Of a stretch of DNA of 64,000 bases, positions 2,791 to 29,401 are shown in pieces. The position numbers and the translations under genes were made by a program. The notes under the pieces were generated by a model. The model did not search any database, was not told where the DNA came from, and worked only from the letters and a program-made list of their open reading frames with translations. Each line of letters opens with the position of its first letter. Positions within the stretch are counted from its first letter, which is position 1. This DNA comes from Hygrophila difformis (lineage: Eukaryota; Streptophyta; Magnoliopsida; Lamiales; Acanthaceae): contig JAOANR010000003.1 in NCBI GenBank assembly GCA_030278955.1, positions 28,597,227 to 28,661,226 on the forward strand, read 5' to 3'.

Positions 2791-2928
2791 CAGTCCTTAT
2801 CCAGAGTTACATGTTTCTGTGGCTTGCCACATTTTCTGTATAGATTGGAATACCTAGATGAATTTATTGTTTTGGTTGTCTTGAAATAAGTAGCATCGAT
2901 TCTCTGTATAACCCAACTTTATGGGTTA

Positions 2929-3118
2929 TGTTGGGACTGCGACCGCCACCCTAACTCCGACATTAGTATGATATTGTCCGCTTTGGGCCAAGCCCGCACG
3001 GTTTTGTTTTTGGGCTCCTCCCAAAAGGCCTCATACTAATGGAGTTAGGTGGACTTCTTATATTTAGGGATACTTTTTCCTTATTCTTCCGATGTGGGAC
3101 TGGGTTTGATACCCAACA
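2929..3118 (-). repeat. 3' LTR of the TRIM-like element
   Basis: 190 bp, begins TGTTGGGACTGC and ends TACCCAACA on the plus strand, so it is bounded by TG and CA. It differs from the copy at 9268 at three positions. A purine-rich tract (TTTGAGGGGATGAT on the minus strand, 3119-3132) precedes it, as expected for a 3' LTR. Confidence 0.9.
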
Positions 3119-3381
3119 ATCATCCCCTCAAACCAAGGACCACAGACCTCATGGTCTCCCCTCGAACGATTATCAACTTGATCCGCCAAATCATCTTGCA
3201 CCGCCGCACCAACCAGCGGGACTCGCCGCCTGACTACCACAATATCAGGAAGACTTTCGACACAGGGCACCAAACACGGATCCAATCGCGAGGGCACAAA
3301 CTGAGGGTCTCCCACCCACACACGCAGTCCATTGCTGAGTCTGCTGATGGCTCGATCCCCGAACCTGGGCTCTGATACCAC
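3119..3381 (-). other. Short non-coding interior of the TRIM-like element with its PBS side
   Basis: On the minus strand it starts with TGGTATCAGAGC (3369-3380), complementary to the 3' end of initiator tRNA-Met, then about 240 bp without convincing coding sequence, and ends in a purine tract next to the outer LTR. Short LTRs, short interior, PBS and polypurine tract without genes are the hallmarks of TRIM-type elements. The base upstream of this PBS belongs to the Copia LTR, not to the TRIM LTR. Confidence 0.75.
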
Positions 3382-3659
3382 TGAAATGAGATCCACACGA
3401 TCGAGTAATTAACCCACTGGCTCAGAGTCGGCCTAGATCCCCGTTGTCCGGCTACAATGATCAAAGGCTTCCTTGAATCTACTCAACACGAAAGGAGGAT
3501 TTTCAACTCACACACAAGGAGAATATCTCACACCAAGGAAGAACTGTTTTTAGCTCACACACCAGGCAGATTGAATAAAATAAGGGCTCTCAACACTTGG
3601 GCCAAAATAAACCGAGCCCACTAGGTATTGGGTTGGCCCATAATAACCCAATACCAACA
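3382..3659 (-). repeat. Inner Copia LTR, copy next to the second PBS
   Basis: 278 bp, TGAAATGAG...AATACCAACA on the plus strand. About six differences (roughly 2%) from the neighbouring copy at 3663-3940. On the minus strand it ends ATTTCA, then G, then the PBS, the organisation of a 5' LTR. Confidence 0.9.
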
Positions 3660-3662
3660 TTC

Positions 3663-3940
3663 TGAAATGAGATCCACACGATTGAGTAATTAACCCACTG
3701 GCTCAGAGTCGACCTAGATCCCCGTTGTCCGGCTACAATGATCAAAGGCTTCCTTGAATCTACTCAACACGAAAGGAGGATTTTCAACTCACACACAAGG
3801 AGAATATCTCACGGCAAGGAAGAACTGTTTTTAGCTCACACACCAGGCAGATTGAATAAAATAAGGGCTCTCAACACTTGGGCCAAAATAAACCGAGCCC
3901 ATTAGGTATTGGGTCGGCCCATAATAACCCAATACCAACA
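3663..3940 (-). repeat. Inner Copia LTR, copy next to the polypurine tract
   Basis: 278 bp. On the minus strand it is preceded by CCAAGGTGGAGAA, a typical Copia polypurine tract, so it is a 3' LTR. It lies head to tail with the other copy, with only GAA (plus strand TTC, 3660-3662) between them. Confidence 0.9.
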
Positions 3941-4118
3941 TTCTCCACCTTGGACCAAGTAATGAGACGGGACTAGCACGGACAGGGATCATCCCGGGTC
4001 GACATTACAATCATCGCCAAGGGTCTTCACACGAACAATCCTGTGAAGAAATAAAATAGAAGGCAAACAGAGAGGAAAAAGAAAAATAAACCAAGTTAGT
4101 AGTTATATCCAAATAACA

Positions 4119-7100
4119 CTAACCAAAATCAAAATGAAGTACTCCCTGAAAGAATTTCAACTTTTTAGTTGTCAGACATTTAGTCCCCATGTCTGCTGGA
4201 TTCTTCTCTGATGCGATTTTCTCAAGCAAAACGTCCCCTCTTTCAACAACATCACGAATATAATGGAATCTAACTTCAATGTGCTTAGTTCTATCATGAA
4301 ATACAGGATTCTTACAAAGTTGAATGGCGGACTGACTATCAGAAAATATAACAGCCCGTTTACAGAAACCAATTTCACTCAATAAGCCCTTAAGCCAAAT
4401 GGCTTCTTTTGCTGAATCAGAGAGTGCTACATACTCTGCCTCTGTCGTGGAAGTAGCAACAACGGATTGCAACTGTGATTTCCAACTTACGCAAGAACCA
4501 CAAACAGTAAACACATAGCAAGAAGTAGATTTCCAATTATCTCGGTCATTCGCAAAGTTCGAATCAGCATAACCACATAATTCAACATCCCTATCAGATT
4601 TCCCAAAAGATAATCCATAACCATATGAGAATTTCAGATATCTGAGAATCCACTTCAGTGCCTCCCAATGAGGTTTACCAGGATTCGACATAAACCTGCT
4701 CAAGCAACTCACAGCATAAGCAATATCAGGACGAGTGCTAACCATCAGATACATAATTGAGCCAATTGCATTAGAATAAGGAGTACTTTCCATTTCTTTA
4801 ATCTCATCATGTGAAGTGGGGCATTGATCTATAGACAAAGAGAAGTGAGATGCTAAAGGTAATCGAACACACTTAGCAGAATTCATACCAAATTTACTCA
4901 AAACTTTCTGAACATAATCAGACTGATTCAATATCAAAACATGCTTAGACCGATCACGAAAAATATCCATGCCTAATATATGTTTTGCATCCCCTAAGTC
5001 CTTCATCTCAAAGCTACGACTTAGGCATTTCATGTATGCACATCATTGAAGTGGAAATCGAAAGCATATCATCAACATAAAGTAATAGAAATATAGGATT
5101 GCCTTTAATAACCTGGTAGTACATACAATGATCATGCTTGCTCCGTGTAAATCCCATAGATTTCATACATGTATCAAATTTCAAATTCCACTGCCTGGGC
5201 GACTGTTTTAAACCATATAATGCTCTTTTCAACAAACAAACATGATTAGGCTTAGATTTATCAATAAAACCTTCAGGCTGACGCATATAAATGTCACGAT
5301 CTATATCACCATGCAAGAAAGCTGTTTTAACATCCATCTGGACTAATTCCCAATCAAATTGTGCAACAAGAGCAAGCATAACACGCACAGTAGTGAATTT
5401 GACAACAGGAGCAAATATTTCAGAATAATTAATCCCTTCCTTTTGAGTAAATCCCTTAGCAACTAGTCTTGCCTTATACCTAGTTGAATTGTTCTCACTT
5501 TTTACTTTATACACACACTTACAATCAACGACTGAGGCACTGCTAGGTTTAGGCACTAGAACCCAAGTCTTATTTGCATATAAAGATGTCATCTCCTCAT
5601 TCATAGCTCCCAACCAGTGATCTGCAAATCTAGACTTCATAGCTTCATTAAAGCTTTTAGGTTCATTACCAGAAATAGATTCAAAATCACTACGGGCTAA
5701 TGCTAACAAATCTTCGTCACTAAACCTAGCCGGTGGCCTAATAACACGTCTAGTCCTGTCTCTAGCCAACATATAATCACTAAGATCATCACCTCCAGAA
5801 ACAACAGGACTATCAGAATCAATCACTGGATTTTCATAATGTGTGACATCAACAGAATTATCAATCTCATGTTCGACTGCATTATCATTCAAATCAACAG
5901 AATCACCATTACTGCTAGAATTACCAGAATTACCCGAGTTACCAGAATTACCCGAGCTTCCAGGCACATCATTATCATGCTCATCATCATCAGACATGTT
6001 AGGCATATAAACAGTAGGAAAAGTAGGAAAAGAACCAGAATTACCATCAGACTGCTCCACCTCAGAAGAAGTGGTGGACTGTTCAGATTTACAAGGAAAC
6101 TCAGATTCATTGAAAAACACATTCCTGCTTACCACTGTTTTAAATCCAGGATTACTCATATCCCATAGCCTATAACCTTTCACACCATCTGGATAGCCAA
6201 GAAAGACACACTTCCTAGTTCGAGAATCCAGCTTATCACCTGTCTGATGAACATATGCTGCACAGCCGAAAACACGTAAGTGATCATAAGGAACGGACTT
6301 ATTCAAGAATACAGATTCAGGACATTTACCACCAAGAGGTATACTGGGTGATCAATTAATCAAATATATAGCAGTAATGAGAGCTTCACCCCAGTTACTT
6401 TTGGAAAGCCCTGTAGGAGCAACCATACTCCTAACCATTTCCAAAAGAGTTCTATTCATCCTCTCGGCTACCCCATTCTGCTGAGGAGTATAAGGTACAG
6501 TTTTGTGTCTCTCCCATGCTGTATACAATAAGTGTCAAATAAAGAATTACAAAACTCCAATCCATTATCTGTCCGTAAAACCAGAAGTCTTTTATCTGTC
6601 TGTTTTTCTACCAAAATTCTCCAATTTTTAAATTTCTCAAAAACTTCAGATTTATGTTTTAGTAAGAAAACCCAAACTTTTCTTGAATAATCATCAATTA
6701 TTGATAAGAAATAATGGCACCCACCCCATGTGGGCATGCGTGTCGGTCCCCAAACATCGGCATGCACATACTCAAGAACACGTGTACACTTAGAAGCATT
6801 CTTAAAAACAGATACTGGAAACTGAACTCGACACTGTTTACCAGATAAGCAGTGCTCACAGAAAGGAACATGAGATATACTGTCATCACCAAAAACTCCA
6901 CCTTGTTTCAGAATTCCCATGCCCCTGTTACTCATATGCCCCAAACGATTATGCCATAAAACAGTTTTATCATTAACAACAGGAACAATATCACTATCAA
7001 CAGGCACAACAGGCACAGAATCACATACATCAGAGGCACTGCTCTCAACAGAATTCATAGAAATATTATCAGAATTTCTCCTCAAGGTGGTACACACATA

Positions 7101-8309
7101 GAAATTATTCCTGCAAAAAGCTTTGAAATTGACCAGAGAACCTTTAAAAATCTTCATAACTCCCTTACCATATTTACCTTCAAAACCATCTCTATCTAAT
7201 GCCGAGCAGGACATCAGATTCAAAGAAAGATCAGGGACATGTCTCACCTCTTTCAATACAATCGAGGTACCAGATGTGAAACTCAAAATCACATCACCAA
7301 CACCTGCAACTTTGCATTTCTTGTTATTTGCAAGCGACACAAAACCATTATCAATAGGTTTATAACAAGAAAAAAGCCATCTCGAAGGACACATATGATA
7401 TGTACAACCAGAATCCAACAACCAAACAAGATCATTCAAATTCACATAAGATGCATTACAGTCAGTCAATGCATGCGAACCTGAAACCATGTACAAATCA
7501 CCCAGGGAATTATCATCTTTAACAGTGTTCGCATTCTCATTCTGTTTATCCTTTTTAGGATGCCTACAGTTCTTTATAAAATGCCCTGTTTCCCCACAAT
7601 TGTAGCATCTTTTAGAACCCTTTTGTTTACTCCTAGATCCACTCCGAGATCTATTTTTCTGCTTATTACCCTTTCCATTAGATTTCCCATTTTCTCTCTT
7701 TTTCGATCTACCCCTCACATGCATCACTTTCTCATCTGAATTCTTTTCCTGCAAATGATATCTCAAATCCAATTCTTTGCTTTTCAAGCCATTAACAACA
7801 GTATTTAGAGTGATCTCATCTCTAGCATATTTTATGGCAGATTTAACATCAGCATAGGAGTCAGGAATTGCATTCAACAACACGATAGGAACATAATCGT
7901 CAATATGCTTATCACCAGTTTCCTTAATCAATTGGATCAATTTAGTAAAATCATCAAGATTATCATCTATATCTTTACTCATGTCCAATCTGTATCTGAA
8001 AAAACGTTCTAACAGAAACATACGGGAAGGCAAAGATGTCTCAGTGTAAGTCTTCTCTAAGGCTTTCCACAAATCACGAGCATTCTCAAAAGTACCAATC
8101 TTCCTTATAACAGAATCAGACAAATGCAAGGTGATAGAAGACAAGGCCAAATCATTCATCTCAGAAGTTTTGTCATCAAGAACAAAAGCAGATTCAATAG
8201 CTTTATTCGCATGTTGTTGCACCAGAACACATTTCATTTTCCTTTTCCAAATACTGAAATCAATTTTCCCATCAAAAACCGCAATATTACTTATCATATT
8301 GCTAGCCAT
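4119..8309 (-). pseudogene. Copia gag-pol polyprotein, broken by two frameshifts and a stop codon
   Basis: The start is most likely the ATG at 8309 (MASNMISNIAVFDG); upstream codons lack an ATG. Frame 1 (8309-6468) gives gag with zinc knuckle CYNCGETGHFIKNC, protease WLLDSGCTYHMCP, the integrase zinc region WHNRLGHMSNRGM and part of the integrase core (HADVWGPT, LRTDNGLEF). It shifts frame near 6525. The second part has an in-frame TGA at 6352-6354, then the integrase end and reverse transcriptase with LLYVDDMLSIS. A second shift near 5035 returns to frame 1, giving the end of the reverse transcriptase and RNase H (TTEAEYVALS, KEAIWLKGLL) to 4119. The domain order protease-integrase-RT-RNase H is that of Copia. 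It cannot make a full polyprotein. Confidence 0.92.
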
Positions 8310-9253
8310 TTTAACAGAAAAATTCCACAGCAAAGAATACCAGATAATACCAGAAAACTAGCAGGAAAAATCCACTAAATTCAGAAAAAAACACAGATTT
8401 CAAATATGCTCTACACAGCCACAAATCAAGAAATCCACCAATATTCACTAAGAATTTCCACCAAACAGTATACCAAAAAATTCACCAAATCACAGAATAT
8501 TCCAAGAATCACCCAAAAAACAGCGATACCTAAGCGAAATCCCGGCCGGAGATTTCATCTTACCCAAAGGACCGGAATACTTTCTTTGATTCCCACAAGA
8601 ATCCAGCAACACAATGCTTCCACAGAAAGAATTCCAAGATCCAATCGACAAACCTTGCAACCAAAAAACAACAGACCCAAAGTTAAATTTGGAAGCAAAA
8701 GTACACTGCAATTTCAACAAAACACAAAAGATTGAAGAAAAATAGCAGAATGTCGAATTTGTTTTTGTTCTTATTCTGGAATGCTCTGTAGATGGAGAAA
8801 AAACAACGCAGAAGGCTTATGAAAGCCTTCTCAGTGGTGGGGGACTTCAACGCCAAACAGCAAAGGAGGCGGTGGTGGCTGGAGCGACGCCGGCAGGGAG
8901 AGCCGCCGGTGGTTTTGCTTTGAGCAGAGAGAGAGAGCCGCCCGCAGAGAGTTCGCCGGAGGGGGACGTGCTCGCAGTCGAGAGCGGCGCTGAACCAGGG
9001 GACGGCGGCTCCGGTTCACAGGCGGAAGGCAGCGCTGAACTTGAGGCGGCGGCGCCGGATTCGCGAGGCGAAGGACGGCGCGCAGGCGAGCGGACAGGCA
9101 GAGGAAAGAGCGACGATCGGCAGTTACAGTGAGGTGAATGGTTTCGCAGGTAGGGGAGCGGCGGTCGACGGCGCAAAGGGCGGTTATTATTCGATCTGTG
9201 TTTGTATTTCCAAACAAACCCTCACAACCCAAAAATCTCAATCTCGATTCATT
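8310..9253 (-). other. Untranslated leader of the nested Copia element
   Basis: Lies between the PBS and gag. The upstream half (8830-9180) is unusually GC-rich and full of CCGCCG-type repeats, giving several overlapping open frames on both strands with no recognisable protein; I treat these as compositional. The rest is A-rich. Confidence 0.6.
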
Positions 9254-9265
9254 GCTCTGATACCA
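9254..9265 (-). promoter_or_regulatory. tRNA-iMet primer binding site after the outer 5' LTR
   Basis: Minus-strand TGGTATCAGAGC, two bases (AG) after the outer LTR end. The sequence after it (AATGAATCGAG) belongs to the Copia leader, not to the TRIM interior seen at 3119-3368. Confidence 0.85.
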
Positions 9266-9267
9266 CT

Positions 9268-9457
9268 TGTTGGGACTGCGACCTCCACCCTAACTCCGAC
9301 ATTAGTATGATATTGTCCGCTTTGGGCCAAGCCCGCACGGTTTTGTTTTTGGGCTCCTCCCAAAAGACCTCATACTAATGGAGTTAGGTGGACTTCTTAT
9401 ATTTAGGGATACTTTTTACTTATTCTTCCGATGTGGGACTGGGTTTGATACCCAACA
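9268..9457 (-). repeat. 5' LTR of the TRIM-like element
   Basis: 190 bp, same ends as the copy at 2929 and followed by the GGTTA duplication at 9458-9462. Only three substitutions separate the copies, so the composite is fairly recent. Confidence 0.9.
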
Positions 9458-9462
9458 GGTTA

Positions 9463-15188: not shown

Positions 15189-15193
15189 GATAC

Positions 15194-15861
15194 TGTTAAC
15201 TACAAATATTTTTGGCCCGTAAAATTAAATTCGTTAGGCCCATTAAATTTGGCCCAGTCCATTTTTAGAGGCCCGCCCCAGTGCAAAATTTATCCGGATA
15301 ATGATCCAGTAGGAAAACCGGCACCATAATGCAGGGGCAACAGTGACTTGTCACAGCCGCCAGCCAGCCGTATCCTCAAGCCGCCACACCTCCTAGGTGC
15401 ATGTGGTGTAACCAGAAGTCAGCCTCCTAGGTGCAGGTCGCGCCTCCTAGGTGCAGGTGGTGTAACCAGAAGTCTTGCATCTCATGAATGCAGACGGCGA
15501 CAGGACGGCGCAAGAAGAAGACGCGTGTGCCTCCACCAATCCTCTACCAGCCGCCATGTCTCATCAAGCCGCCAGCGCCCGTAGTGTCACCAGAAGTCAA
15601 GCATCTCATTAACGCATGGCGGTACACACTCTCTATAAAAGGATGAAGAGGGCATGGAAGCAGATCAGATCCACACACCCTAAGAGGACGCACTTTTCAT
15701 ATTTTTCATTCCTGCACTTTTTCATTCTGCAAGTTCAATTCTTGTTTTTACATTCCTGCAAATTTTCCATTCCTTTACAGCTTTGCTTAAATTCTTGTAA
15801 TTCCCTTAGTAATCCTTGTAATCCTCTTCAAACATTGTTCAATCAAAATTCTTGGTTAACA
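15194..15861 (+). repeat. 5' LTR of the Tat element
   Basis: 668 bp. Contains four AGCCGCC motifs (15355, 15379, 15549, 15567), three copies of CTCCTAGGTGCA (about 15390, 15424, 15444), repeated GTAACCAGAAGTC, and a TATA box at 15634. TTGGCACGCCCAGTTGGAC (15864-15882), the likely PBS, follows two bases later. Confidence 0.93.
15634..15640 (+). promoter_or_regulatory. TATA box of the Tat 5' LTR, with upstream GCC boxes
   Basis: TATAAAA in a CTCTCTATAAAAGG context. Exact GCC-box sequences (AGCCGCC, the known binding site of plant ERF factors) lie 61 to 279 bp upstream. Duplicated at the same place in the 3' LTR (about 29855). Confidence 0.7.
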
Positions 15862-15863
15862 AA

Positions 15864-15882
15864 TTGGCACGCCCAGTTGGAC
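15864..15882 (+). promoter_or_regulatory. Primer binding site of the Tat element
   Basis: TTGGCACGCCCAGTTGGAC lies two bases after the LTR. It has the form of a Gypsy primer site; I did not identify the tRNA. Confidence 0.6.
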
Positions 15883-15912
15883 GCGAGTGGAAACCATATC
15901 CGCTTAGAGTGT

Positions 15913-18380
15913 ATGCTACTTAGATCTGGACGAGTAGTAAGAGACTTAACACAAAAATTTGAAGAAATGGCGCTCCATGAAGAAACTCCAGTAAGAACAC
16001 CATCTGAGAACGCCGATGATGCGGCGACTACTTCCCAACCACCGCAAGGGATAATGCAAGTCCCAACCCTTTCGGAACAGATGCGGCTATCGATGACTGA
16101 ATCCATGGCCGAGTTCATGCCTCTACTTACCAGGCATGTTATGGACGTGTTGCGGCCTGCTATGGCCGATCAAACTGACAAGATTTGTGGATCCCTGCGC
16201 ACTTCGCAAGAGGGCTCCATCTCAGTGAATGACACGAATGTGTCACCAAGCATCCCAGGGCCGTATGGCGGCCCACAGAGGACTTGGGGGACAACCTTTG
16301 GCCAGCAACCACTCTCTGAGTGCGGAGGTATAGCTAGTCTGCCTCCGTTTCCTTCTTCTCATACTTTCGTTCCTGCGACAGGTAATATGCCGAACGGTTG
16401 TTATACAGCGCCTCTCATAATGTATGCTTCATCTGGATACTTAATGGGCGTTGTACCAACCATTCCTGGCATGGCACTACGCCAGGTGACGGCACAGCCA
16501 TTTGGAGTGGCGGCGCCTATGCCACCGGCCGACATCCCTACTTTAGGCACTGGAGGAGGATACATGCAACATCAGGCCGCCAACATGAGTCATCCGGCCG
16601 CCAACATGAGTCATCCGGCCGCCAGCATGCCTCATCCGGCCGCCAACTTGGCTTCGGCCGCCAACATGGCCCAGGCCGCCATGCCTCAGGCCGCCATGGC
16701 TCATCCGGCCGCCAACATGAGTCATCTGGCCGCCAGCATGCCTCATCCGGCCGCCAACTTGGCTTCGGCCGCCAACATGGCCCAGGCCGCCATGCCTCAG
16801 GCCGCCATGGCTCATCCGGCCGCCATGTATCAACAAGCTGCCATGCCTCCTACACAGGCGCCTGTGGTGTCGCCCGAGTTGTTGGCAGATATGATGCAAC
16901 AACATTTCGGCATTCAATTAAGGCCGATGGAACGGCCCACCTATAGGAAACCATACCCGGATTGGGTAGACACAATGCAGCCTTACCTAAAGGCTTCAAA
17001 ATGCCCGAGTTCACCACGTTCTCGGGAGACGACGGCAAATCAACCATAGAACACGTGGGCAGGTTTACTGCTCAATGTGGCGAAGCAGCGGCCAACGATT
17101 GGCTGAGACTAAGGTTGTTCAGCTCCTCACTGACTGGACCTGCCTTTGCCTGGTTTGCGTCATTGCGACCTAATTCTATTCAAAATTGGGCCGATCTCGA
17201 GCGGGCGTTTCATGACAGATTCTATACTCCTCTGTCACAGGTTAGTCTTGCAGATCTCACTAACGCCAAACAATTTGCCGATGAGGCGGCGAGTTCTTTT
17301 ATTAACAGATTGCAGCGCCTAAAAGGCCGATGTACTATAGCAATACCAGATAAAGAAATAGCCAATATAGCCGTGGCTAACATGTTACCGAGATTAAAAG
17401 AACATTTAATTGTGCAGGATGCAACTGACCTCGCCCAGCTGGCCGAGAGAGCGGCCCGCGTGGAAAAATTCCTGGGAGAACAGGAACAGAGACGTCCTAT
17501 ACGTCGAGTCCACTTTGAGGATGTGAGACTCAGTAATGAGGAGGACGAGGCTGTGGAAGTGGTTGTTGCAGAACTAGTGCACACAGCCAAACCGCATACG
17601 TGTGCGGCTCTCAAGCTGGCAAAACAAAGAGAGGCTAGGTATAAGCCTGAAGAAGACCTCTTTGACATGGGCAAGGCGGATCAAGTATTCGATGCCCTAC
17701 TCAAAGACGGTGTGATCAAATTGCCTGAAGGGCAAAAATTACCAGCGGCCGAGGAAATTCGGGGCCGAGCATTTTGTAAGTGGCATAACTCATTTACTTA
17801 CAGCATTACTAAATGCAGGAGTTTTAGAACTGCCATACAGAACAAAATAAAAGAGGGTCTTTTGAAAATTGCAGGTATGAAGGTGGATTTAGATCCATTT
17901 CCTCAGCTTCCAATTGGTGTTTCTGGACTCATCCCAAATCCAGAAGATGGCGGCTCCAGTAGCCGGACTAATAAAGGAAAGGAACACATTGAAATCGATG
18001 AAGAGGATATGGACTTATTATCTGATGAGTCTGATCATGAAAGAAAAGAGTTTTGCAGTAAACAACCAAGGTTTAAGAGCATGTCGAAAGAGGACTTCAA
18101 GAAGGTCCTGGAAGCTGAAGAAAGAGAGCACCACAAGAAGAAGAACCCTCCTTTGAGGGTGGAGATCCCTAAGCAGGCGGTAGAGATCCATGAAAATGGA
18201 AGACACCAGACTGTTACTCGTGATTATAGGCATGGTGTACAGGTGGTTCCAACCTTGATGAGGCGACCAGAACATCCAGTTGAGGCTGATAGTTGGATGA
18301 GGAACCGGGCACATAGTAAAGCTGCTCAAAAGAAGCCGCCACCCATGACTAGAAGTCAATTTAGGCGGGCTCAGAGATGA
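15913..18380 (+). pseudogene. Tat gag, frameshifted
   Basis: The first ATG after the LTR (15913, MLLRSGRVVRDL) opens a frame to 17049. Residues encoded at 16560-16850 are tandem units of the type HPAANMSHPAASMPHPAANL, with QAAMPQAAMAHPA between, from a GGCCGCCAACATG-like DNA repeat. The frame must shift near 16970-17040 to continue in a second frame with the capsid domain (FTTFSGDDGKSTIEHV, WLRLRLFSSSLTGPAFAWF), typical of Retrotrans_gag. That frame ends at a TGA (18378-18380), after which the same frame goes on for 320 codons. Gag forms the virus-like particle. Confidence 0.85.
16560..16850 (+). repeat. GGCCGCC-rich tandem repeat inside gag
   Basis: Units of about 15-30 bp such as GGCCGCCAACATGAGTCATC are repeated, and a larger block of about 120 bp (starting near 16590 and 16710) is duplicated. 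The translation is an Ala/Asn/Met/His/Pro-rich low-complexity stretch. The same GCCGCCA word recurs in the LTR and in the antisense gene. Confidence 0.85.
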
Positions 18381-18392
18381 TACGCCGAGGAA

Positions 18393-19352
18393 ATGCGGCA
18401 ATGGGAAGCTCAGATCCACAAGTTGGAGTCTTCCAGGCCTCGGAAGCCCATACAGCCGACTTACTTCAGAGGAGAAACCTCCGAACAGCGGAGGCCTAAC
18501 TCGTCCATAACACCCCATCAAAGAAAGATGCATGAAGCCTCAAGAAGGTCACCACAGCCGTCATCACCCAGGAGGCCAACCCGGGAGAGGCTGCAGCCGC
18601 CATCACCCTCCACCAGGAGGCCGATGAAGGAGAGGTTGCAACCGCCATCATCTTCTACTACCAGGAGGCCAGTACGAGAGAGACTGCAATGGACGGAAAG
18701 AAGACCTCAGCCACCATCGCCTCAACCTAAGGCAACACAAATGGAGTCTCCTCAAGTTAACATTCAACCATCGGTGTCTAAAGACAAAGGTAAAGCTATT
18801 GTTACCGAGTCTGATGATAAAGGGAGTAAGGTTAAATCTGTAGGACAGAAGTTCATCGAGAAGCTAGACAAAATGGACATGACTCCTTCAAACATGGCTA
18901 TGGCTAGTGTGCTAATGAAATACATGGCATATTTGGCGGCCCATGAAGCCGGTGAATTTGGAAATGAACCACATAGTTTTGAAGGATTCACGGCTTATTG
19001 CAAGACTGTAGAAACCCAGAAGAAGTCACAGATACAAGTTGAAACGAAATCAACTAGTGAAACACTTCAAGCGACCAATAAGGCACCACAAGTGAATTTT
19101 GGTGTTATTACACCTACAGAAGTGGAGGTTGCTGTGGAGGCCAATCTCGATGAACCTAAAGTTAGGATTGGTGCCCTAGGCATCATGACTGATGAATGTG
19201 GCACGATCGATGATATGAATATTGACGAAGGATATGAAGATGATGTGTGGGGTAATGTGAACCTCAATATTGATGAGGAGTATCATGTTGAATTAGAAGG
19301 CATGGATCTTGAAGATGAGGTTTTCTGGAAAAAAATTGGACAAAGAGCTTAA
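18393..19352 (+). pseudogene. Tat gag-protease linker region
   Basis: In-frame continuation of gag after the TGA at 18378. Rich in Arg/Pro/Ser repeats (ERLQPPSPSTRRPMKERL) and then acidic. No zinc knuckle is visible. It stops at 19352 and the protease begins in another frame from 19309, so an indel lies in the overlap. Confidence 0.6.
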
Positions 19353-20193
19353 AGAAGCAGACGATAGGGAAGAAGAAGGGCCGAATGACCCATCCGTGCC
19401 TATGCGGGTCATTGGATTGGCGGCTGAGGAAGAGGTAAGTGATGCCGAATCCGAGATATGGGATGAGGAAGAGCCATCGTTCGCGAGGCTTATTGAAAAA
19501 ATGGATGAAATGATAGCCGAATTGTCCCATCCAACCAGGGATGCACCTCCTATACAAGAACTTGGCGGCCAACATGATGCTTCAAATTCGGCTGTGGCAC
19601 AGTTTGCCAAACCTGAGGTTGCTCAGACAAGGCATCTGAAGCTCTTGTATGTCAAGGCTCACATCGATGGGCGTCCTGTGAGCAGGGTATTTGTTGATAA
19701 TGGGGCGGCAGCCAATGTGATGCCGATGTCAACTCTAATGAAGATTGGGAAGAGTGAAAAAGATCTGATCCCCACAAGGGTTAGAATGTGCAGCTTCGTA
19801 GGGGAAGCAACCCAACCTGCCGGATTCATAACGGCGGACGTCACTATTGGATCCAAGACCATCAAGGTCGCCTTCTTTGTGGTGAAATCAAAGACGTGTT
19901 ACTCGGCATTGCTTGGGCGCGACTGGATTCACATGGCGCAGTGTGTGCCATCCACCCTCCACCAGCAGTTGTTAATTTGGGATGGTGACCGGATAGAATT
20001 GGTGGAGGCGGATCCTCAACCCTTTGCAGGACCGGACGCCAACAATGATGAGGCGATCTTCTACATCGAAGACATCCAACCTGCATCAGCTTTAATTGGT
20101 ATGGACATGGATCTGGAATCCATTGACTTCACAACAAGCGGCTTCAAGTTACATCTTGCAGATAGCCGACATGAAGCATCAAACTCTTCATGA
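19309..20193 (+). CDS. Tat aspartic protease region
   Basis: Encodes RVFVDNGAAANVMPMSTL, a retropepsin active-site motif (Asp-Asn-Gly-Ala in place of Asp-Ser/Thr-Gly), and SALLGRDWIH, the second conserved protease element. It would process the polyprotein. The frame ends at a stop overlapping by four bases the next frame (20190), so in this copy it is separated from the reverse transcriptase. Confidence 0.8.
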   Translation: MKMRFSGKKLDKELKEADDREEEGPNDPSVPMRVIGLAAEEEVSDAESEIWDEEEPSFARLIEKMDEMIAELSHPTRDAPPIQELGGQHDASNSAVAQFAKPEVAQTRHLKLLYVKAHIDGRPVSRVFVDNGAAANVMPMSTLMKIGKSEKDLIPTRVRMCSFVGEATQPAGFITADVTIGSKTIKVAFFVVKSKTCYSALLGRDWIHMAQCVPSTLHQQLLIWDGDRIELVEADPQPFAGPDANNDEAIFYIEDIQPASALIGMDMDLESIDFTTSGFKLHLADSRHEASNSS

Positions 20194-22397
20194 TAAGCAG
20201 CTATGACATTTATAAAGACTTGTTGCAGCGGCTCGCCAACACTGAAATAATGATGGGTGCCGAAATCAAGTCCAAAAACCCAGCTGACATTCGGCCATCT
20301 GAGTGGCCATCTCCTGTGAAGCAGACGTTGCCTAGTCCGGAAGCCAAGGAACCACTTGTAGACATCAACCTCGGGACGGATGAAGAGCCAAAGCTGACCA
20401 AGATAAGTGCATCATTGCCTAAGGAGAAGCGACACCAGCTAGTGGAGTTGATTCATAAGTATAAAGATTGCTTTGCGTGGCAATACACAGAAATGCCAGG
20501 ACTATCAAGGGAGCTAGTGGAACACAAGTTGCCAACTCATCCAGAATTCAGACCTCATAAGCAGCCACCAAGACGGTTCGATCCAGACACCATCCCAAAA
20601 ATAAAGGCCGAGATTGAGAAGCTTCTTAAAGCAGGTTACATTAGAACTTGTCGTTATGTAGAATGGCTTGCAAATATTGTACCTGTTGTAAAGAAGAATG
20701 GTAAACTGAGAGTCTGTATAGACTTTAGGAACTTAAACTTGGCAACGCCCAAGGATGAATATGTAATGCCTATGGCTGATATGCTTGTTGATGCGGCCGC
20801 CGGCCACAAGTTTTTATCTTTAATGGATGGTTATTCTGGATACAACCAAATCTTCATTTCTGAAAATGATGTACATAAAACAGCTTTTCGTTGCCCAGGG
20901 CCAGTCGGCATTTTTGAATGGGTATTCATGCCCTTTGGATTAAAAAACGCGGGGGCAACATACCAAAGAGCCATGAACATGATTTTTCATGATTTAATCG
21001 GTCACACACTTGAAGTATATATTGATGACATAGTGGTAAAATCATGTGAATTTGGCCAACACTTGGCTCACCTTGAAGGTTCCTTCATCCGAATGAGGCA
21101 GCATAGATTGAAAATTAATCCAGCTAAGTGTGCCTTTGGAGTGGCAGCAGGGAACTTCTTAGGTTTCCTGGTGCATGAGAGGGGCATTGAGGTAGACCAG
21201 AACAAAGCTAAGGCCATCCTGGAGGCTCGTGCACCAACCAATCTCAAAGAACTGCAGTCATTGATGGGCAAAATCAATTTCATAAGGAGATTCATTGCCA
21301 ATGCTACCGGCAAGATGAAAGCGTTCACTACCTTACTTAAAGGAAGAAAGAACGAGAAGTTCGTATGGACGACTGAGCATCAAGCAGCCTTCGAAGAAAT
21401 AAAAAGAGCATTGGTCAATCCTCCAGTATTAGTGCCGCCAAGACCTGGAATACCTTTGAAACTATATGTATCGGCCGCTGATGAGTCTATCGGGTGCTTG
21501 CTTGCACAGGACGATGAAGGCGGCAAGGAGAGGGCTATCTATTACCTTAGCAAGACTCTGCAAGGGCCAGAGGTAAGATATACTGCATTAGAAAAGTTGT
21601 GCTACGCCCTCGTATACTCCTGCAACAAGTTAGAACACTACATGCTGCCAAGAACAGTTCATGTAGTGGCTCCCTTCGACTTGGTGAAGACCCTTTTGCA
21701 CAAACCAGCATTAAAGGGTAGACAAGCTAAGTGGGCTATGAAGATCAATCCTTTTACCCTTGTACACGTTCCTCAAAAGGCAGTCAAGGGGCAAGCTTTA
21801 GCTGACTTCTTAGCTCAACACCCTTCGTTGGTTCTGTCAGAAGATCCCAAAGAAGTGTCCTTTATGGGATTCGAACCTTGGGAGCTAACCTTTGATGGGT
21901 CTTGTGCAAGCAGCGGCTCGGGGGCCGGCATTACAATCACTAGTCCTCTTGGGGAATATTGGAAGCTTGCTCGGGAGTTAGAGCCTGGCACCACCAACAA
22001 TCAAGCAGAGTACGAAGCTTTGATATTTGGCCTCGAAACTGCATTGCTTAAGGGTGCGAAATCAATTACAATTTTTGGAGACTCCCAAATCATCCTGAAG
22101 CGGTTAACCAGAGAATATGAATGCAAGAGTCCCAGATTGATTAAGTGCTATGAGACAGCACTAGAACTATTGGGCAAGTTTTCGGACGCTACCATCACAC
22201 ATGTGCCTAGAAGCCAAAATCAAGAGGCCAACGAGGCTGCTCAACTTGCTTCAGGCTGGCAGTCTTGTCGCCCTAGGGGGCACCACACATTGCCGCCATC
22301 ACAAGTGAACCTGAGGACCAACAAGAGAGTGGTGATTGGAGGACCGAGATCATATAGTACCTCGAGAACCCGTCATCTGGAGGAAATAACTCGCTAA
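20190..22397 (+). CDS. Tat reverse transcriptase with two RNase H domains
   Basis: Reverse transcriptase: [46 protein letters not shown] and the catalytic YIDDIVVKS. The connecting RNase H follows (LYVSAADESIGCLLAQ). A second RNase H follows at about residues 565-700: LTFDGSCASSGSGAGI, NNQAEYEALIFGLETAL, FGDSQIILKRL. This second, plant/archaeal-type RNase H marks the Tat lineage. The catalytic Asp, Glu and Asp residues are visible. The frame ends at 22397 and the integrase is in a different frame. Confidence 0.92.
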   Translation: MISSYDIYKDLLQRLANTEIMMGAEIKSKNPADIRPSEWPSPVKQTLPSPEAKEPLVDINLGTDEEPKLTKISASLPKEKRHQLVELIHKYKDCFAWQYTEMPGLSRELVEHKLPTHPEFRPHKQPPRRFDPDTIPKIKAEIEKLLKAGYIRTCRYVEWLANIVPVVKKNGKLRVCIDFRNLNLATPKDEYVMPMADMLVDAAAGHKFLSLMDGYSGYNQIFISENDVHKTAFRCPGPVGIFEWVFMPFGLKNAGATYQRAMNMIFHDLIGHTLEVYIDDIVVKSCEFGQHLAHLEGSFIRMRQHRLKINPAKCAFGVAAGNFLGFLVHERGIEVDQNKAKAILEARAPTNLKELQSLMGKINFIRRFIANATGKMKAFTTLLKGRKNEKFVWTTEHQAAFEEIKRALVNPPVLVPPRPGIPLKLYVSAADESIGCLLAQDDEGGKERAIYYLSKTLQGPEVRYTALEKLCYALVYSCNKLEHYMLPRTVHVVAPFDLVKTLLHKPALKGRQAKWAMKINPFTLVHVPQKAVKGQALADFLAQHPSLVLSEDPKEVSFMGFEPWELTFDGSCASSGSGAGITITSPLGEYWKLARELEPGTTNNQAEYEALIFGLETALLKGAKSITIFGDSQIILKRLTREYECKSPRLIKCYETALELLGKFSDATITHVPRSQNQEANEAAQLASGWQSCRPRGHHTLPPSQVNLRTNKRVVIGGPRSYSTSRTRHLEEITR

Positions 22398-22408
22398 AGG
22401 TAAAAGCT

Positions 22409-23590
22409 TTGCGGTACGTGCTGGTCAATGGTGAACTATTCCGAAGGGCGGTTGATGGATTGTTGCTCAAGTGTATAGGCCCCGAGGACGCTAAGTTGGT
22501 GATGGGAGAAGTCCATGAGGGGATATGCGGCTCTCATCGGGCAGGGCCGAGCATGAGGTGGAGCATCCACCGTTATGGGTACTTCTGGCCAACCATCATG
22601 GAGGACTGTATCACGTATGCTCGCGGGTGTGAGGCTTGCCAAAAGCACGGCCCAATTCAAAGGGTACCAGCGGAAGAATTACACACAGTCATTAAGCCTT
22701 GGCCATTCCGTGGCTGGGGGATGGACATTATTGGGAAGATTCATCCGCCATCATCTAAGAATCATTCATTTATACTTGTGGCCACTGATTACTTTACTAA
22801 ATGGGTGGAAGCATGGCCAATGAAGAAAATCGATCAAGGCGATGTAATTAAATTTGTGACTGAGTTAATACATCGGTTTGGAATCCCTCAAACAATCACT
22901 GCCGATCAATGTACAGTGTTCACTGGTGAAAAGTTTATAGCTTTCGCCAAACAGTTTGGGATCCGCATCTATCACTCTACTCCATACTATCCTCAAGCAA
23001 ACGGTCAGGCTGAAGCCACCAATAAGACCCTAATAAGTATGATCAAAAAGGCGGTAGGCGAAAAACCTAGAAAATGGCATGAGACCTTATTAGAGGTTCT
23101 ATGGGCTTACAGAAACTCTAAATCCACAGCTACAGGGTTTACACCATACTACTTGACATATGGTCATGACGCTGTTTTGCCTTTGGAAATAACAGTTCCT
23201 TCTCTAAGGGTGGCTCAGCTGCATCACTTAGACTTATCTAAGTATGAAGAAGCCATGTTGCAAGAGTTAGAGACAGCTGATGGTGACAAGCTTATGGCCT
23301 TGGAAAGCATCCGTCGTCAAAAAGCTAGAATGGCAAAGCATTATGATAAGAAGGTTCGAAGCAAGACCTTCAGCGAAGGGGATCTAGTGTGGAAAGTGAT
23401 CCTACCGTTAGGAGTGCATGCTAATGAGACTGGGAAGTGGTCCCCAAATTGGGAAAGACCATTCATTGTAACACAAAGACTACTCAATGGTGCATACAAG
23501 TTAATGGACATCGATGGTCAAGAACACAAACAGAGTATAAATGCAAAATATCTCAAAATGTTCTATCCATCAGTCTGGGAGTCAGAATAA
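22409..23590 (+). CDS. Tat integrase
   Basis: Has the zinc-binding pattern HEGICGSH...CEACQK, the catalytic core with ATDYFTKWVEAW (first Asp), TADQCTVFTGEKF (second Asp; usual form is DQGT) and PQANGQAEATNKT (Glu), and a C-terminal region ending KYLKMFYPSVWESE. It inserts the cDNA into the host genome. The start is arbitrary because it is the downstream part of a polyprotein separated from the RT by a frameshift near 22400. Confidence 0.92.
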   Translation: MRYVLVNGELFRRAVDGLLLKCIGPEDAKLVMGEVHEGICGSHRAGPSMRWSIHRYGYFWPTIMEDCITYARGCEACQKHGPIQRVPAEELHTVIKPWPFRGWGMDIIGKIHPPSSKNHSFILVATDYFTKWVEAWPMKKIDQGDVIKFVTELIHRFGIPQTITADQCTVFTGEKFIAFAKQFGIRIYHSTPYYPQANGQAEATNKTLISMIKKAVGEKPRKWHETLLEVLWAYRNSKSTATGFTPYYLTYGHDAVLPLEITVPSLRVAQLHHLDLSKYEEAMLQELETADGDKLMALESIRRQKARMAKHYDKKVRSKTFSEGDLVWKVILPLGVHANETGKWSPNWERPFIVTQRLLNGAYKLMDIDGQEHKQSINAKYLKMFYPSVWESE

Positions 23591-23741
23591 GCAGCATAAG
23601 TGCATCATGAGTGGCCAATCACATGGTTGGCCAAAGAAGTATAAAAAACGGCAAACATGATTACTGAAATGCTCATCACAAGGTCGATGAGCTGACCCAA
23701 AATAGAGTACTGAATAAAAAATCACAAAAGCAAAAGCAGTG

Positions 23742-24527
23742 CTAACTACTCGGGGGAGATAGCGTCTCATCACCTAGTAGGCGACAACGCATGACGGCCC
23801 ACTGATCACGGGCACGCCCAAGGGTGTCTGTAAGGCGACGAAGTGCTGCGGCAGAAACTCGGGCACGAGCTGATAGAAGAGGTCGACGGGCTCTCGATAA
23901 CTCAACTGATAAATCACGATCATCTGCAGCTAAACGATCATGATCAGCGTACAAAGCGGTAACTCGATCAGACAACTTGAGCAGCTCAGCCTCAAGTATA
24001 ACAAGCTCAACGGTAGCTCCATCTGCGATGCAGCTCTGCTCTCTGATAATACGCTCCGCCTCCGCAATAACCTCTTTCTGCTTCTCTATCTTGCGCTTCG
24101 CCTGGGCAACAGTACTCTCTAACTGTGACTGCCTACTCTCCTCACTCCTAAGAACCATAGACGCATGATCGTGCTGGGGACATATAACCTCTAACTGGGA
24201 ACGAACCTCGCGGTGCCGCACCTCGAGATCATCAATAAGTGTCAAGTCCTGAGCAGACTGATCTGCTGAACTGCTATAGAGAGGATAAGCAAGGGACAAG
24301 TCAGAAATGAGCTCCGAGAAATCCGAGAAGCCGGCGTCCTCAATGAAGGCAGGGACTGAGCTAACATCATCAACAAGGTCATAGAGTCCAGAGACCATCT
24401 CGGCTGATAGTGGACCGGTCTGGGTGGAAAAAAGACGATCAAACGCCTCACATGATGAGGCTATGGCAGCGCGAGTGCCCGAGTCTGGAAGAGAGGCCAC
24501 GAGGCCTGCATGAGGGTCCTTAGGTGC
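23742..24527 (-). CDS. Exon 9 of the antisense gene: coiled coil C-terminus
   Basis: 262 codons including the stop, intact. Starts after TTTGCCCCCAG. The middle (ESRQSQLESTVAQAKRKIEK, QKEVIAEAERIIREQ, ELLKLSDRVTALYADHDRL) has the heptad pattern of a coiled coil, suggesting oligomerisation. Ends GDETLSPPSS. Confidence 0.7.
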   Translation of the reverse strand, partial: APKDPHAGLVASLPDSGTRAAIASSCEAFDRLFSTQTGPLSAEMVSGLYDLVDDVSSVPAFIEDAGFSDFSELISDLSLAYPLYSSSADQSAQDLTLIDDLEVRHREVRSQLEVICPQHDHASMVLRSEESRQSQLESTVAQAKRKIEKQKEVIAEAERIIREQSCIADGATVELVILEAELLKLSDRVTALYADHDRLAADDRDLSVELSRARRPLLSARARVSAAALRRLTDTLGRARDQWAVMRCRLLGDETLSPPSS

Positions 24528-25112
24528 CTGGGGGCAAACTATGTTAGAATACTACAAAAGTTTTATTACGACAAGAGATGAAAGGAAGTATACCTGAAGA
24601 GGTGGAGCAGTCAAATCAGCTGAGAGAGCTGAAATGTCAGTCACAGAGCGGTCTGTCTGAGTAGGCGGTACAGTCAAATCGACTGAAGCATCAGCAGTGG
24701 AGTGATCTGCCTGATCCGTAGGAGTTTAGAGGAAGACAACACTTAGAACGTATCTTGAAAGATAAGAGCAAGAAAAAACAACTAAAGGGATACCTGAGAG
24801 GTCGCCAAAGGATCAGCAGTGCTGATCATGGAGGCGCAATCTGCAGCCTGAGTGGTAAGAGAAGAGCCTATCCGATCTCCAGGGGCCTAGAGGATAGATG
24901 TCTTCAGAATCATTTTGCATAATAGTAAGAGGCAAAAGAAAATGAGGACGTAACTAAAAGTGTACCTGAGAAGTCAGCTCGGGAGTAACGGAGCCAACCG
25001 TAGAGACATGGTCGCCAGCATGAAAAGATGATGGATCCTAAGCAGAAAGGAGAGATGTTGATGCTTAGCCAATACAAGAGTTGAACAAAGAGTCCAAAGT
25101 GGTGAAATGTAC

Positions 25113-25490
25113 CTGATCAATGGAAGTAGGGTGAGTAGCATCCATCACCATGGCTTTAGTCTGGTGCGTAGGATCATCCCCATGGAGGATGATATAGTCA
25201 GCACGAGCCAACTCCTCATCATATGGATCCCTCCTAGCAATGACACTATTCATATGCTGATCAACAATAGTCGTCGCCTCGTGAAGGTCCGCCACCATAA
25301 CATCACCATCATCATCTACAAGATCCTCATCATCATCACCTGAACCCGACTCCTCCTCACTAGGAAGTCCCATCCTCATCAGAATGAGCAGTGTAATCCT
25401 CATCAGTAGACTCCTCAGAGCTCGCAGACTCCTCCTCATGCTGGTCATCTGGGGCATCACCCTCATCATCCTCACTATCATGGTCATCAG
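25113..25490 (-). pseudogene. Exon 5 of the antisense gene: acidic segment
   Basis: Starts after TTTTCTTCAG and encodes DDHDSEDDEGDAPDDQHEEE and further Glu/Asp/Ser-rich sequence. One base too many near 25365 shifts the frame, which then continues as SEEESGSGDDDEDLVDDDGD and ends TSIDQ at the donor. With that base ignored, the phases on both sides match. Confidence 0.65.
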
Positions 25491-25557
25491 CTGAAGAAAA
25501 GAGAATATTAAAAGACCAGGAAAACAATAAAAAGACATGTTAACAAAGGAGACATAC

Positions 25558-27202
25558 CTCTTCGGCGTTTGCGAGATGAGGAGGCTGCAACAGATTTTGA
25601 CTTCGGGGTGCGACTAGAAACAAGAGTAGCTGCCGACCGAACAGCGGCACTATGAACGCTAGGCTGCTTCGAAGAGGCCGAGCTACGCCGCACGTCCCCA
25701 AAACGAGCTGTAATCTGCGCATAGGATGGCAAGATGGAGGTGATGAATGGCGTCCACCATGCCATAAAATCAGCAGCAAGCGTCCCTGTCGGAGTGAATG
25801 GAAGATAACTAGATAACGTCAGACGGGACGAGAAATCAACCACTGCCTGGATGTCAGCGACCGTCATCCTCTTACTCCTAATAGATACCGGCCACTTCAC
25901 ACAGCGAGGAAGTCCGAGATGACAACCGAACTGACGAGCGAGCAAATGAGGGCAATATGGCTCAGCTACGATCGGATTATACTGATCCCTCCTCTTTAGC
26001 CCACTCAGAAGCATATGAGGCTTCATACTAACGTTCCAGGTGGACTCTCCATGTAGACCACGTGGCTGATCAGGCTTGCACACAAGCTGGGACAGCAACC
26101 ATCCTATAGAGGCATACACATATAAGTCCTGATAAGAGGGCCTGTGGTGAAGAAAAAATCGAATAATATCTAGACTGTCCCGCTGCAAGAGACCATCCCT
26201 GCCAATCTTCACCGAAGCAGCAGCTAGTATCAGGCCTAACGGGTCACCATCAGCAACATTCTGCGGACCAGGACGAGGCACACCAGTAAAAAGCCGAGGA
26301 AAGTATAGCTGAATCCAGAGCTACAGAAACCATAACGGCCCACAGGCCGAATTAGTGGGATCTCGCCCACTAGCCAGCATACCAGAAATCTTGGCCATAC
26401 CACTGAATAGGGTGCCAAGAAAATAAGAACCAGTGGCCGGAGAAGGATCATTCATAATAGCCCGTACAAGAGGAAGAGCGGAACGCAAGACGGTCCGAGC
26501 CCTCGAACAGATAATAAACCGGCTAAACCATAGCAATAGAAAGGCCACGTGCTCATCCAAGGTGCAAGGAGAACTCTCGGACGTCATATTGTTATCAATG
26601 AATGCCGCGTACTGCTTAGTCTCTTTGCCCGGAGGGCAAATAGTATCACCAAGAGCTCGATCATCAGAAGCCGACTGTGTCAACTCTGAACCATCCACTC
26701 GGAGTCCTGTGATCATGACCACATCAAGAAGCGTGGGACCCACGAAACCACAAGGAAACTGAAAGGCGTTAACACTAGAGTTCCAGAAGCCCAAGATGTA
26801 ATAGATGAGACGATGATCTATCACTACAAGCCTAGTAGAGAGAATAATGGCATCTTCAATACCCCAGTTACGCCAGTCAGCTGTGCGTCCTCCCCTCTGC
26901 ATCCGGCGAACCCATGAGACATATTTTTCCAAAATACTCTGATCCTCATTCTCTTCGGTTCGGGGAGCCTTAGCCTTTTTAGATCTAGGAGCAGCGGTGC
27001 CAGACTGATGAGACCGGATAGACCTCGTCTGCAAAAAAAAGGCTCCAGTAAATGCAGCCTGAGTGATCGGACATATGCAATCCCGGGTCTCATCTGCATG
27101 CGCAGTCGTGCGATGAAACGGGCGTAAAAAAGGCTCGGACTCCCGGCGATCAAAATCATAAGCCTCATCATCAGACTCCGGAATGAGTAGTCCCTCAGCA
27201 AT
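25558..27202 (-). pseudogene. Exon 4 of the antisense gene: plant mobile domain
   Basis: The largest exon, 1,645 bp. From the 5' side: an acidic segment (IPESDDEAYDFDRRES), KKAKAPRTEENEDQSILEKY, then the mobile domain through ITGLRVDGSE and HVAFLLLWFSRFI, GSYFLGTLFSGMAKI, and GPLWFL followed by an in-frame TAG where a Gln codon (CAG) would be expected. The same frame continues (LWIQLYFPRLFTG) to SSRKRRR at the donor site (GAG|GTATGT). Domain identity is inferred from motif order. Confidence 0.75.
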
Positions 27203-27515
27203 CTGCATTATTATGATACACATATCAAGCAAAGGCAAGGTAGGATGAATTAACATATCACCAAGTAAGTTGAGCAAACCTGAGTAGAGGACCCGACAGC
27301 CTGAACGAATGAGGATGGCGGCTGAGACCCGGCATGAGTGGCGGCCTGAACAGGAGTGGCGGCCTGGGTACCCAGAATGGCGGCCTGAGGAGTCCTCGCG
27401 ACAATGTCCTATTGCAAATTTGAACAAATCGGTTAAAAAAAAAAAAAAGAAGCTCACAACTAGAAGAGTGAACATACAAGCAGGCAAAGAGATGGAACAA
27501 AGAGATGGAACAAAC

Positions 27516-29290: not shown

Positions 29291-29310
29291 CTTAATGAGA
29301 GGTGGTGGCT

Positions 29311-29317
29311 TTTTATA
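29311..29317 (-). promoter_or_regulatory. TATA box for antisense transcription
   Basis: Minus-strand TATAAAA in CTTCTATAAAAAGCC, followed about 30-70 bp later by a pyrimidine-rich leader (TTTCTTCTTTTCCTCC). It points at the antisense gene, away from the 3' LTR. Confidence 0.5.
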
Positions 29318-29401
29318 GAAGTCATGAAATTAGGATTTTTAAACGGGCCTATTGGGCCAGAACGCGCATATCTGTCTTTTAATACTAATCACACAAATTG
29401 C

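What the first reader, a model, noticed from the sequence alone, without database searches (positions are those of the whole stretch)
3369..9265. Copia 2-LTR circle apparently recombined into a TRIM-like element at the shared primer binding site
Seen: between two identical-type 190-bp outer LTRs with a GGTTA duplication, the PBS word TGGTATCAGAGC occurs twice. The first follows the outer LTR but continues into the Copia leader; the second follows a Copia LTR but continues into the TRIM interior. Between them is one complete Copia unit opened at its PBS, with two tandem LTRs. Known: reverse transcription yields linear cDNA that can be ligated into 2-LTR circles. Inference: a 2-LTR circle was joined to the TRIM by recombination or template switching at the PBS. 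A chimera of this kind would let a coding element travel between LTRs of a non-coding one.
Basis: partly seen in the sequence, partly recalled or inferred. Interest (0 to 1): 0.9.

Follow-up and report, generated by a model that had tools for sequence, protein, structure and literature searches.

The report
Retrotransposons swapping parts at priming site
In this plant genome a tiny non-coding mobile element is fused with other mobile elements exactly at the 12-base site where copying of their RNA into DNA starts, in the window and in at least four further insertions, most likely because their DNA copies were made side by side and exchanged strands there before inserting.

Summary
The anatomy is confirmed. 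A minus-strand TRIM-like element (190-bp LTRs, 187/190 identical; TSD GGTTA) holds a Copia unit between two copies of the PBS word. The unit ends in two tandem 278-bp LTRs joined by G+AA, the letters that flank this LTR, as expected from ligated unprocessed cDNA ends.

The host genome answered 2 of 50 search requests. The TRIM exists natively: 23 of 40 loci read are plain LTR-PBS-interior-LTR. At 11 of 40 (window included) a foreign, LTR-like sequence directly precedes PBS plus TRIM interior; nine different partners. One is a Cassandra-type LTR; a native Cassandra elsewhere has the same 22 bases before its PBS but another interior. Both polarities occur: TRIM outside with Copia inside, and the mirror, a foreign element outside with TRIM and its own tandem LTRs inside. 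All five chimeras with two complete outer LTRs have exact 5-bp TSDs.

Best explanation: intermolecular strand transfer at the shared PBS, then end-joining of cDNA. Native copies of this Copia family could not be searched. Rice OsajLTRA10 (Gao 2016) is probably the same kind, read the other way round.

The parts
2924..2928 (.). target-site duplication GGTTA (3' side in sense)
2929..3118 (-). TRIM LTR (LTR_T), 3' copy in sense, 190 bp
   Evidence: 187/190 to 9268-9457; LTR of native TRIM copies
3119..3368 (-). TRIM interior (T_int), 250 bp, ends in a purine tract next to the LTR
   Evidence: 41 matches at 40 loci in the genome; 23 of 40 canonical
3369..3380 (-). second PBS, follows a Copia LTR and continues into the TRIM interior
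3381..3381 (-). 1-nt spacer (G in sense) between Copia LTR and PBS
3382..3659 (-). Copia LTR (LTR_C), second of two tandem copies in sense, 278 bp
   Evidence: 272/278 to 3663-3940
3660..3662 (-). junction of the tandem LTRs, sense G then AA: LTR-G end joined to AA-LTR end
3663..3940 (-). Copia LTR (LTR_C), first of two tandem copies in sense
3941..3953 (-). Copia polypurine tract region, sense CCAAGGTGGAGAA
   Evidence: sequence; role from general knowledge of LTR elements
4119..5042 (-). Copia ORF: end of reverse transcriptase and RNase H region
   Evidence: (RVT_2, below cut-off in this piece)
5014..6351 (-). Copia ORF: SH3-like domain and reverse transcriptase
6468..8357 (-). Copia ORF: gag, zinc knuckle, Pol_BBD, pre-integrase, integrase core
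8311..9253 (-). Copia leader, 943 nt
   Evidence: sequence; by position
9254..9265 (-). first PBS, follows the TRIM LTR and continues into the Copia leader
9266..9267 (-). 2-nt spacer AG between TRIM LTR and PBS, as in native TRIM copies
9268..9457 (-). TRIM LTR (LTR_T), 5' copy in sense
9458..9462 (.). target-site duplication GGTTA (5' side in sense)

Best explanation
The window element is a TRIM whose 5' LTR plus PBS is followed by a Copia leader and body, and whose interior is preceded by two tandem Copia LTRs, a structure that most likely arose when the two elements' cDNAs exchanged partners at their shared PBS. Proposed steps (all inferred): (1) TRIM and Copia RNAs were copied in one particle, both primed at the same tRNA site. 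(2) At the second (plus) strand transfer, which uses PBS complementarity, the TRIM plus-strand strong-stop DNA annealed to the Copia minus strand and the reverse, giving two hybrid linear cDNAs: LTR_T-PBS-Copia-LTR_C and LTR_C-PBS-TRIM interior-LTR_T. (3) Their like ends (LTR_C with LTR_C) were ligated by the host without integrase trimming, which leaves G+AA. (4) The product now had LTR_T at both ends and was inserted by integrase, which made the 5-bp TSD. Joining of the other pair of ends would give the mirror form, TRIM with tandem LTR_T inside a foreign element, which the genome also holds. If the joined ends recombine within the LTR, one inner LTR remains, which is also seen.
For: Junctions lie at the PBS and the inner spacer equals the letters flanking LTR_C. 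Native TRIM at 23 of 40 loci. Foreign LTR-like sequence directly before PBS plus TRIM interior at 11 of 40 loci, window included, nine different partners. TRIM outside: window, L042, L043, and L060 with a cut-short outer LTR. Mirror: C6 with LTR_T-AGATAT-LTR_T inside a 227-bp LTR pair, and C10b with TRIM inside a 654-bp LTR pair that is 100% identical. Five of five with complete outer LTRs have 5-bp TSDs. Cassandra swap: identical 22 nt before the PBS in native L012 and chimeric L045, different interiors after it. L045 continues LTR_T-AG, 8 nt, TTC, inverted Cassandra LTR: two untrimmed LTR ends joined head to head, which needs a linear hybrid. TRIM interiors of L020, L021 and L022 are 100% identical to canonical L019, yet have three different partners. 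Second transfer occurs in the PBS, and an intermolecular one makes a U5/gag breakpoint (PMC5651808, passages).
Against: In HIV the second strand transfer is reported as generally intramolecular (PMC5651808, passages). No native copy of this Copia family was searched successfully. The C6 inner junction has 2 nt more (AGATAT) than simple joining predicts (AGAT). The best single-junction hybrid with two different LTRs (C9, L040) failed my 5-bp TSD test; the letters show a 6-nt direct repeat, AACAAA, and its 5' LTR is not confirmed by a second copy. L045 and L062 are rearranged. Every double-junction form can also come from a circle plus one crossover.
Confidence: 0.6

Rival explanations
1. One reading: a Copia 2-LTR circle recombined with a TRIM cDNA by one crossover at the PBS, probably by microhomology-mediated (alt-EJ) repair, and the product inserted by integrase.
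For: Gives the same double-junction structure and the same G+AA spacer. Alt-EJ at PBS microhomology and NHEJ-made 2-LTR circles are described for LTR elements (PMC12786077, sections 12 and 16 and passages).
Against: Needs two separate molecules to meet over 14 bp, and needs circles of different elements in turn to explain the mirror class. Does not explain the head-to-head LTR join in L045.
Confidence: 0.25
2. Integrase-independent entry of a Copia circle or cDNA into a TRIM already resident in the chromosome, by Rad52/SSA-type recombination at the PBS.
For: Integrase-defective Tf1 inserts at PBS and PPT homology and makes tandems (PMC12786077 section 16).
Against: Outer LTRs should then be older than the inner ones; here outer 3/190 and inner 6/278, no difference (Fisher p 0.74). 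C6 has outer 1/227 and inner 0/193. The homology is 14 bp.
Confidence: 0.08
3. The large element is ancestral and the TRIM is its deletion derivative, as proposed for rice OsajRetroS10 and OsajLTRA10.
For: Published reading of a very similar rice pair with a duplicated PBS-containing 25-mer (PMC4717578 sections 18 and 22).
Against: Here the same TRIM interior sits with nine different partners, the inner LTRs carry cDNA-end letters, and the mirror class exists.
Confidence: 0.03
4. Assembly error at the tandem LTRs or the PBS repeats.
For: No reads could be inspected.
Against: Inner copies differ at six sites, so it is not a duplicated read. Comparable junctions recur at other loci with their own TSDs.
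Confidence: 0.02

Closest known systems
Rice OsajLTRA10 and TRIM OsajRetroS10 (Gao et al. 2016, PMC4717578; sections 18 and 22 read, passages elsewhere)
   Same: TRIM LTRs at the ends, Copia coding inside, and a duplicated 25-bp segment that contains TGGTATCAGAGCC on both sides of the breakpoint.
   Different: Authors infer that the TRIM is a deletion derivative; no inner Copia LTRs are mentioned in the sections read. Here inner LTRs with cDNA-end letters, many partners and the mirror form argue for a chimera. The rice DNA was not inspected.
Template-switching complexes of Triticeae, rice and maize (Sabot and Schulman 2007, PMC1950507; whole text read)
   Same: Complex insertion of two elements with one TSD and like outer LTRs, ascribed to reverse transcription of co-packaged RNAs.
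   Different: Switch proposed between R regions of near-identical elements, three LTRs of one family. Here the exchange is at the PBS between unrelated families.
Onsen recombination during bursts (Sanchez et al. 2017, PMC5668417; passages seen)
   Same: Pairwise recombination of co-packaged transcripts.
   Different: Between members of one family, not between families.
LTR swapping in soybean (Du et al. 2010; seen only as a reference entry, not held)
   Same: Autonomous and non-autonomous elements exchanging LTRs.
   Different: Details not seen.
Tandem LTR arrays of TRIMs, Cassandra and other elements (PMC4717578, PMC7215508, PMC11899658; passages and sections seen)
   Same: Multi-LTR insertions with a TSD; Cassandra uses the same PBS word.
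   Different: Arrays of one element sharing LTRs, not PBS-joined chimeras.

Membership tests
TRIM (terminal-repeat retrotransposon in miniature), outer part | short LTRs, PBS, short non-coding interior, PPT, TSD, several copies | tested here: met
   190-bp LTRs, 250-bp interior, 23 of 40 canonical copies; no protein relative for its longest ORF (12 candidates, none at E 0.01 or better)
Ty1/Copia retrotransposon, inner part | gag, integrase, reverse transcriptase domains in Copia order | tested here: met
   Retrotran_gag_2, Pol_BBD, gag_pre-integrs, rve, SH3, RVT_2 in three ORFs
Ty1/Copia retrotransposon, inner part | native copies with 278-bp LTR, G spacer, PBS and this leader | not tested
   pattern search sent repeatedly, never answered
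2-LTR cDNA junction | complete LTRs joined with the few untrimmed nucleotides of both cDNA ends | tested here: met
   LTR-G|AA-LTR; C6 gives LTR-AG|AT plus 2 extra nt
Sabot-Schulman template-switching complex | single TSD and like outer LTRs around two element bodies | tested here: met
Sabot-Schulman template-switching complex | switch at R, one shared inner LTR of the same family | tested here: not met
   switch at PBS between unrelated LTRs
Cassandra (partner at L045) | box A, box C and PBS in the published order and spacing | tested here: met
   published query of PMC7215508 matches L045:8908-9104 and a native copy in L012
Cassandra (partner at L045) | 5S rRNA domain in the LTR | tested here: inconclusive
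   5S_rRNA best match E 0.078, 19.6 bits against gathering 38; none at gathering

The most novel reading that the evidence does not exclude
The universal tRNA-primer site works as a standing exchange point between LTR elements: TRIMs swap LTRs and interiors with whatever element is copied beside them (coding Copia, Cassandra, other non-coding elements), the chimeras insert and count as new elements, and each one is a fossil that names a partner present during TRIM reverse transcription, so TRIM helpers can be read from genomes.
Probability: 0.45. Interest if true: 0.85.

Novelty: new variant of a known kind. Interest (0 to 1): 0.72.

Why it matters
TRIMs code for nothing and their helpers are largely unknown: Gao 2016 found larger relatives for 11 of 289 subfamilies. 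A TRIM joined at the PBS to a Copia, by a route that would need both cDNAs in one place, makes helper identification a sequence question. It also offers a route by which unrelated families exchange LTRs, and a different reading of the rice 'autonomous TRIM'.

Tried and rejected
Plain nested insertion: rejected, because the TSD lies outside the outer LTRs and the inner breakpoints are the PBS, not LTR ends. Simple 281-bp tandem duplication of the inner LTR: would need breakpoints exactly at both cDNA ends. Protein search with the TRIM ORF: no match at E 0.01. IMG/VR scans: 0 hits for three queries. A bacterial genome scan with a 19-mer of the TRIM LTR gave 7 loci that share only 19-20 bp, i.e. 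chance. Three of the 14 loci without LTR_T before the PBS were not counted as foreign-LTR chimeras: L015 and L059 (pol-like sequence before the PBS) and L055 (inverted LTR_T). Three further loci lack an adjacent 3' LTR_T (L024, L057, L063). The partners at L021 (C9) and L062 (C3) are LTR-like by position and PBS only; L062 is rearranged. L020 and L028 share one partner, and L056 and L060 are one event in a segmental duplication, hence 11 loci and nine partners. Only 40 of 213 candidates were scored by the tool; a 41-mer pattern found 32 places, of which 9 are not among the 40 and were not read.

Full report
Observation. Read on the minus strand, the window holds LTR_T (9457-9268), AG, PBS (9265-9254), a Copia leader and body, a purine tract, LTR_C (3940-3663), G+AA (3662-3660), LTR_C (3659-3382), G (3381), PBS (3380-3369), TRIM interior (3368-3119) and LTR_T (3118-2929), between copies of GGTTA. 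The PBS word is expected 0.01 times per window by chance. The two junctions share exactly AGTGGTATCAGAGC. LTR_C carries one spacer base, G, before its PBS, and AA stands before it after the purine tract; the LTR-LTR spacer is G+AA. This is what ligation of two untrimmed linear cDNA ends would leave. A 3-nt match has a 1 in 64 chance, but together with complete LTR ends it is the expected 2-LTR junction.

Parts and host. The Copia body has gag, zinc knuckle, protease-like Pol_BBD, integrase, SH3 and reverse-transcriptase matches in three ORFs in different frames, so it is not intact. The names among the 120 best of 3,002 protein hits to its last piece are plants, with Sesamum, Rehmannia, Dorcoceras, Striga, Erythranthe and Salvia (all Lamiales, from general knowledge) prominent near the top. 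The host is therefore probably a Lamiales plant; this is an inference. The genome held has 915,113,747 bases in 246 contigs.

TRIM family. A search with the TRIM interior plus PBS gave 41 matches at 40 loci; the tool scored 40 of 213 candidates. I read all 40: 30 loci and 10. Of these, 23 are canonical LTR_T-PBS-interior-LTR_T, 14 have no LTR_T directly before the PBS, and 3 have no adjacent 3' LTR_T. So the TRIM is a real family and the Copia is not its native interior.

Chimeras. Of the 14, three were set aside (L015, L059, L055). The other 11, window included, have a foreign, LTR-like sequence ending next to the PBS, from nine partners. TRIM outside: the window; L042 (C5; Copia gag, one LTR of partner Xa, LTR_T pair 183/190, TSD CTACA); L043 (C11; start of a Copia gag, a deletion, the end of LTR X1, LTR_T pair 188/190, TSD AATAC); and L060 (C1; cut-short 5' LTR_T, RNase H region, one LTR Xb) with its segmental-duplication copy L056. 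Mirror: C6 (L041/L048), a 227-bp LTR pair (226/227), PBS, TRIM interior, LTR_T, AGATAT, LTR_T (193-nt unit 100% identical), AG, PBS, a 474-bp foreign interior, TSD CATTC; and C10b (L044/L052), a 654-bp LTR pair 100% identical, PBS, TRIM interior, an LTR_T of which only both ends remain, AG, a PBS with one mismatch, Copia gag (entered at profile position 53) and pol, TSD AATGG. All five with two complete outer LTRs have exact 5-bp TSDs, so each chimera entered its site as one unit or was built inside a resident element.

Cassandra swap. At L045 the sequence before the PBS matches the published Cassandra query. A native Cassandra in L012 has the identical 22 nt before its PBS but continues into its own interior; its LTR is about 92% identical to that of L045. 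The 5S match is only suggestive (E 0.078, below gathering; none at gathering). L045 then runs LTR_T, AG, eight nt, TTC, and an inverted piece of the Cassandra LTR: the untrimmed ends LTR_T-AG and Cassandra LTR-GAA head to head. A head-to-tail circle does not give this; a linear hybrid cDNA joined to another cDNA does. The locus is rearranged, so this is support, not proof.

Independence. TRIM interiors of L020, L021 and L022, with three different partners, are 100% identical to canonical L019; other chimeras sit elsewhere in the tree. PBS exchange has therefore happened repeatedly, also recently (C10b outer LTRs 0/654, C6 outer 1/227).

Mechanism. Shown: junctions at the PBS, cDNA-end letters, TSDs, both polarities, several partners, one native partner with the same flank. 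Inferred: copying side by side, exchange at the second strand transfer, end-joining. That transfer occurs in the PBS, and an intermolecular one creates a U5/gag breakpoint (PMC5651808, passages); the same passages say it is generally intramolecular in HIV, which counts against frequency. Alt-EJ use of PBS microhomology for this step is reviewed in PMC12786077 (section 12), citing a paper that is not held. One partner exchange yields two hybrids whose two possible like-end joins give exactly the two polarities found. The circle model gives the same double-junction forms and is not excluded. Outer and inner LTR divergence do not differ in the window (3/190 against 6/278, p 0.74), which fits one birth but does not prove it.

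Negative and weak points. Native copies of the window's Copia were not found because the search did not complete. The candidate hybrid with two different LTRs (C9, L040) failed the 5-bp TSD test, where I had also set one end one base short; the letters show a 6-nt direct repeat AACAAA, and its 5' LTR has no second copy in hand. For Xa and Xb the LTR call rests on a purine tract and TG/CA ends; for X1 on two loci; for Xe and Xf on position and PBS. The C6 spacer has two extra letters.

Known work. Gao et al. 2016 (sections 18 and 22 read) describe rice OsajLTRA10, a Copia with TRIM LTRs and a duplicated 25-mer CGATCCTA(C/T)AA(G/T)TGGTATCAGAGCC around the breakpoint, and infer that the TRIM arose by deletion. 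The 25-mer contains the PBS; by the present reading it marks a PBS chimera (inference; the rice DNA was not seen). Sabot and Schulman 2007 (whole text) describe template-switch complexes at R within families. Sanchez 2017 (passages) shows pairwise recombination within a family. In nine full-text searches (open-licence PMC papers only) no listed title or abstract describes reciprocal PBS chimeras between families; this is not proof of absence.

Noticed in passing
window 31811-34490: A 2.67-kb LTR element, minus strand, LTRs 248 bp (97%), TSD CTAAG, same PBS word at 34224-34235 after a 2-nt spacer, internal 88-bp tandem repeats at 33525-33863: a canonical arrangement.
   Followed up: partly
window 38497-44197: LTR pair of 387 bp, 100% identical over the 300 nt compared, around minus-strand ORFs of 1174 and 350 aa: a young LTR element.
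   Followed up: no
window 15193-30078: LTR pair of about 665 bp, 14.2 kb apart, with several ORFs between.
   Followed up: no
window about 4000-4110, minus strand: Downstream of Copia pol: TACTAAC, a pyrimidine-rich tract and TTCACAG, like a plant splice acceptor (motif recalled).
   Followed up: no
L062 and L039: Inverted repeats (190 bp and about 820 bp) flank or precede the PBS-TRIM segment, perhaps also from joined cDNA ends.
   Followed up: partly
L057: A TRIM copy with a 190-nt tandem duplication within its interior.
   Followed up: no
L059 and L015: TRIM PBS/interior joined to Copia pol sequence at short microhomology, with a 77-nt pol copy repeated downstream in L059.
   Followed up: no
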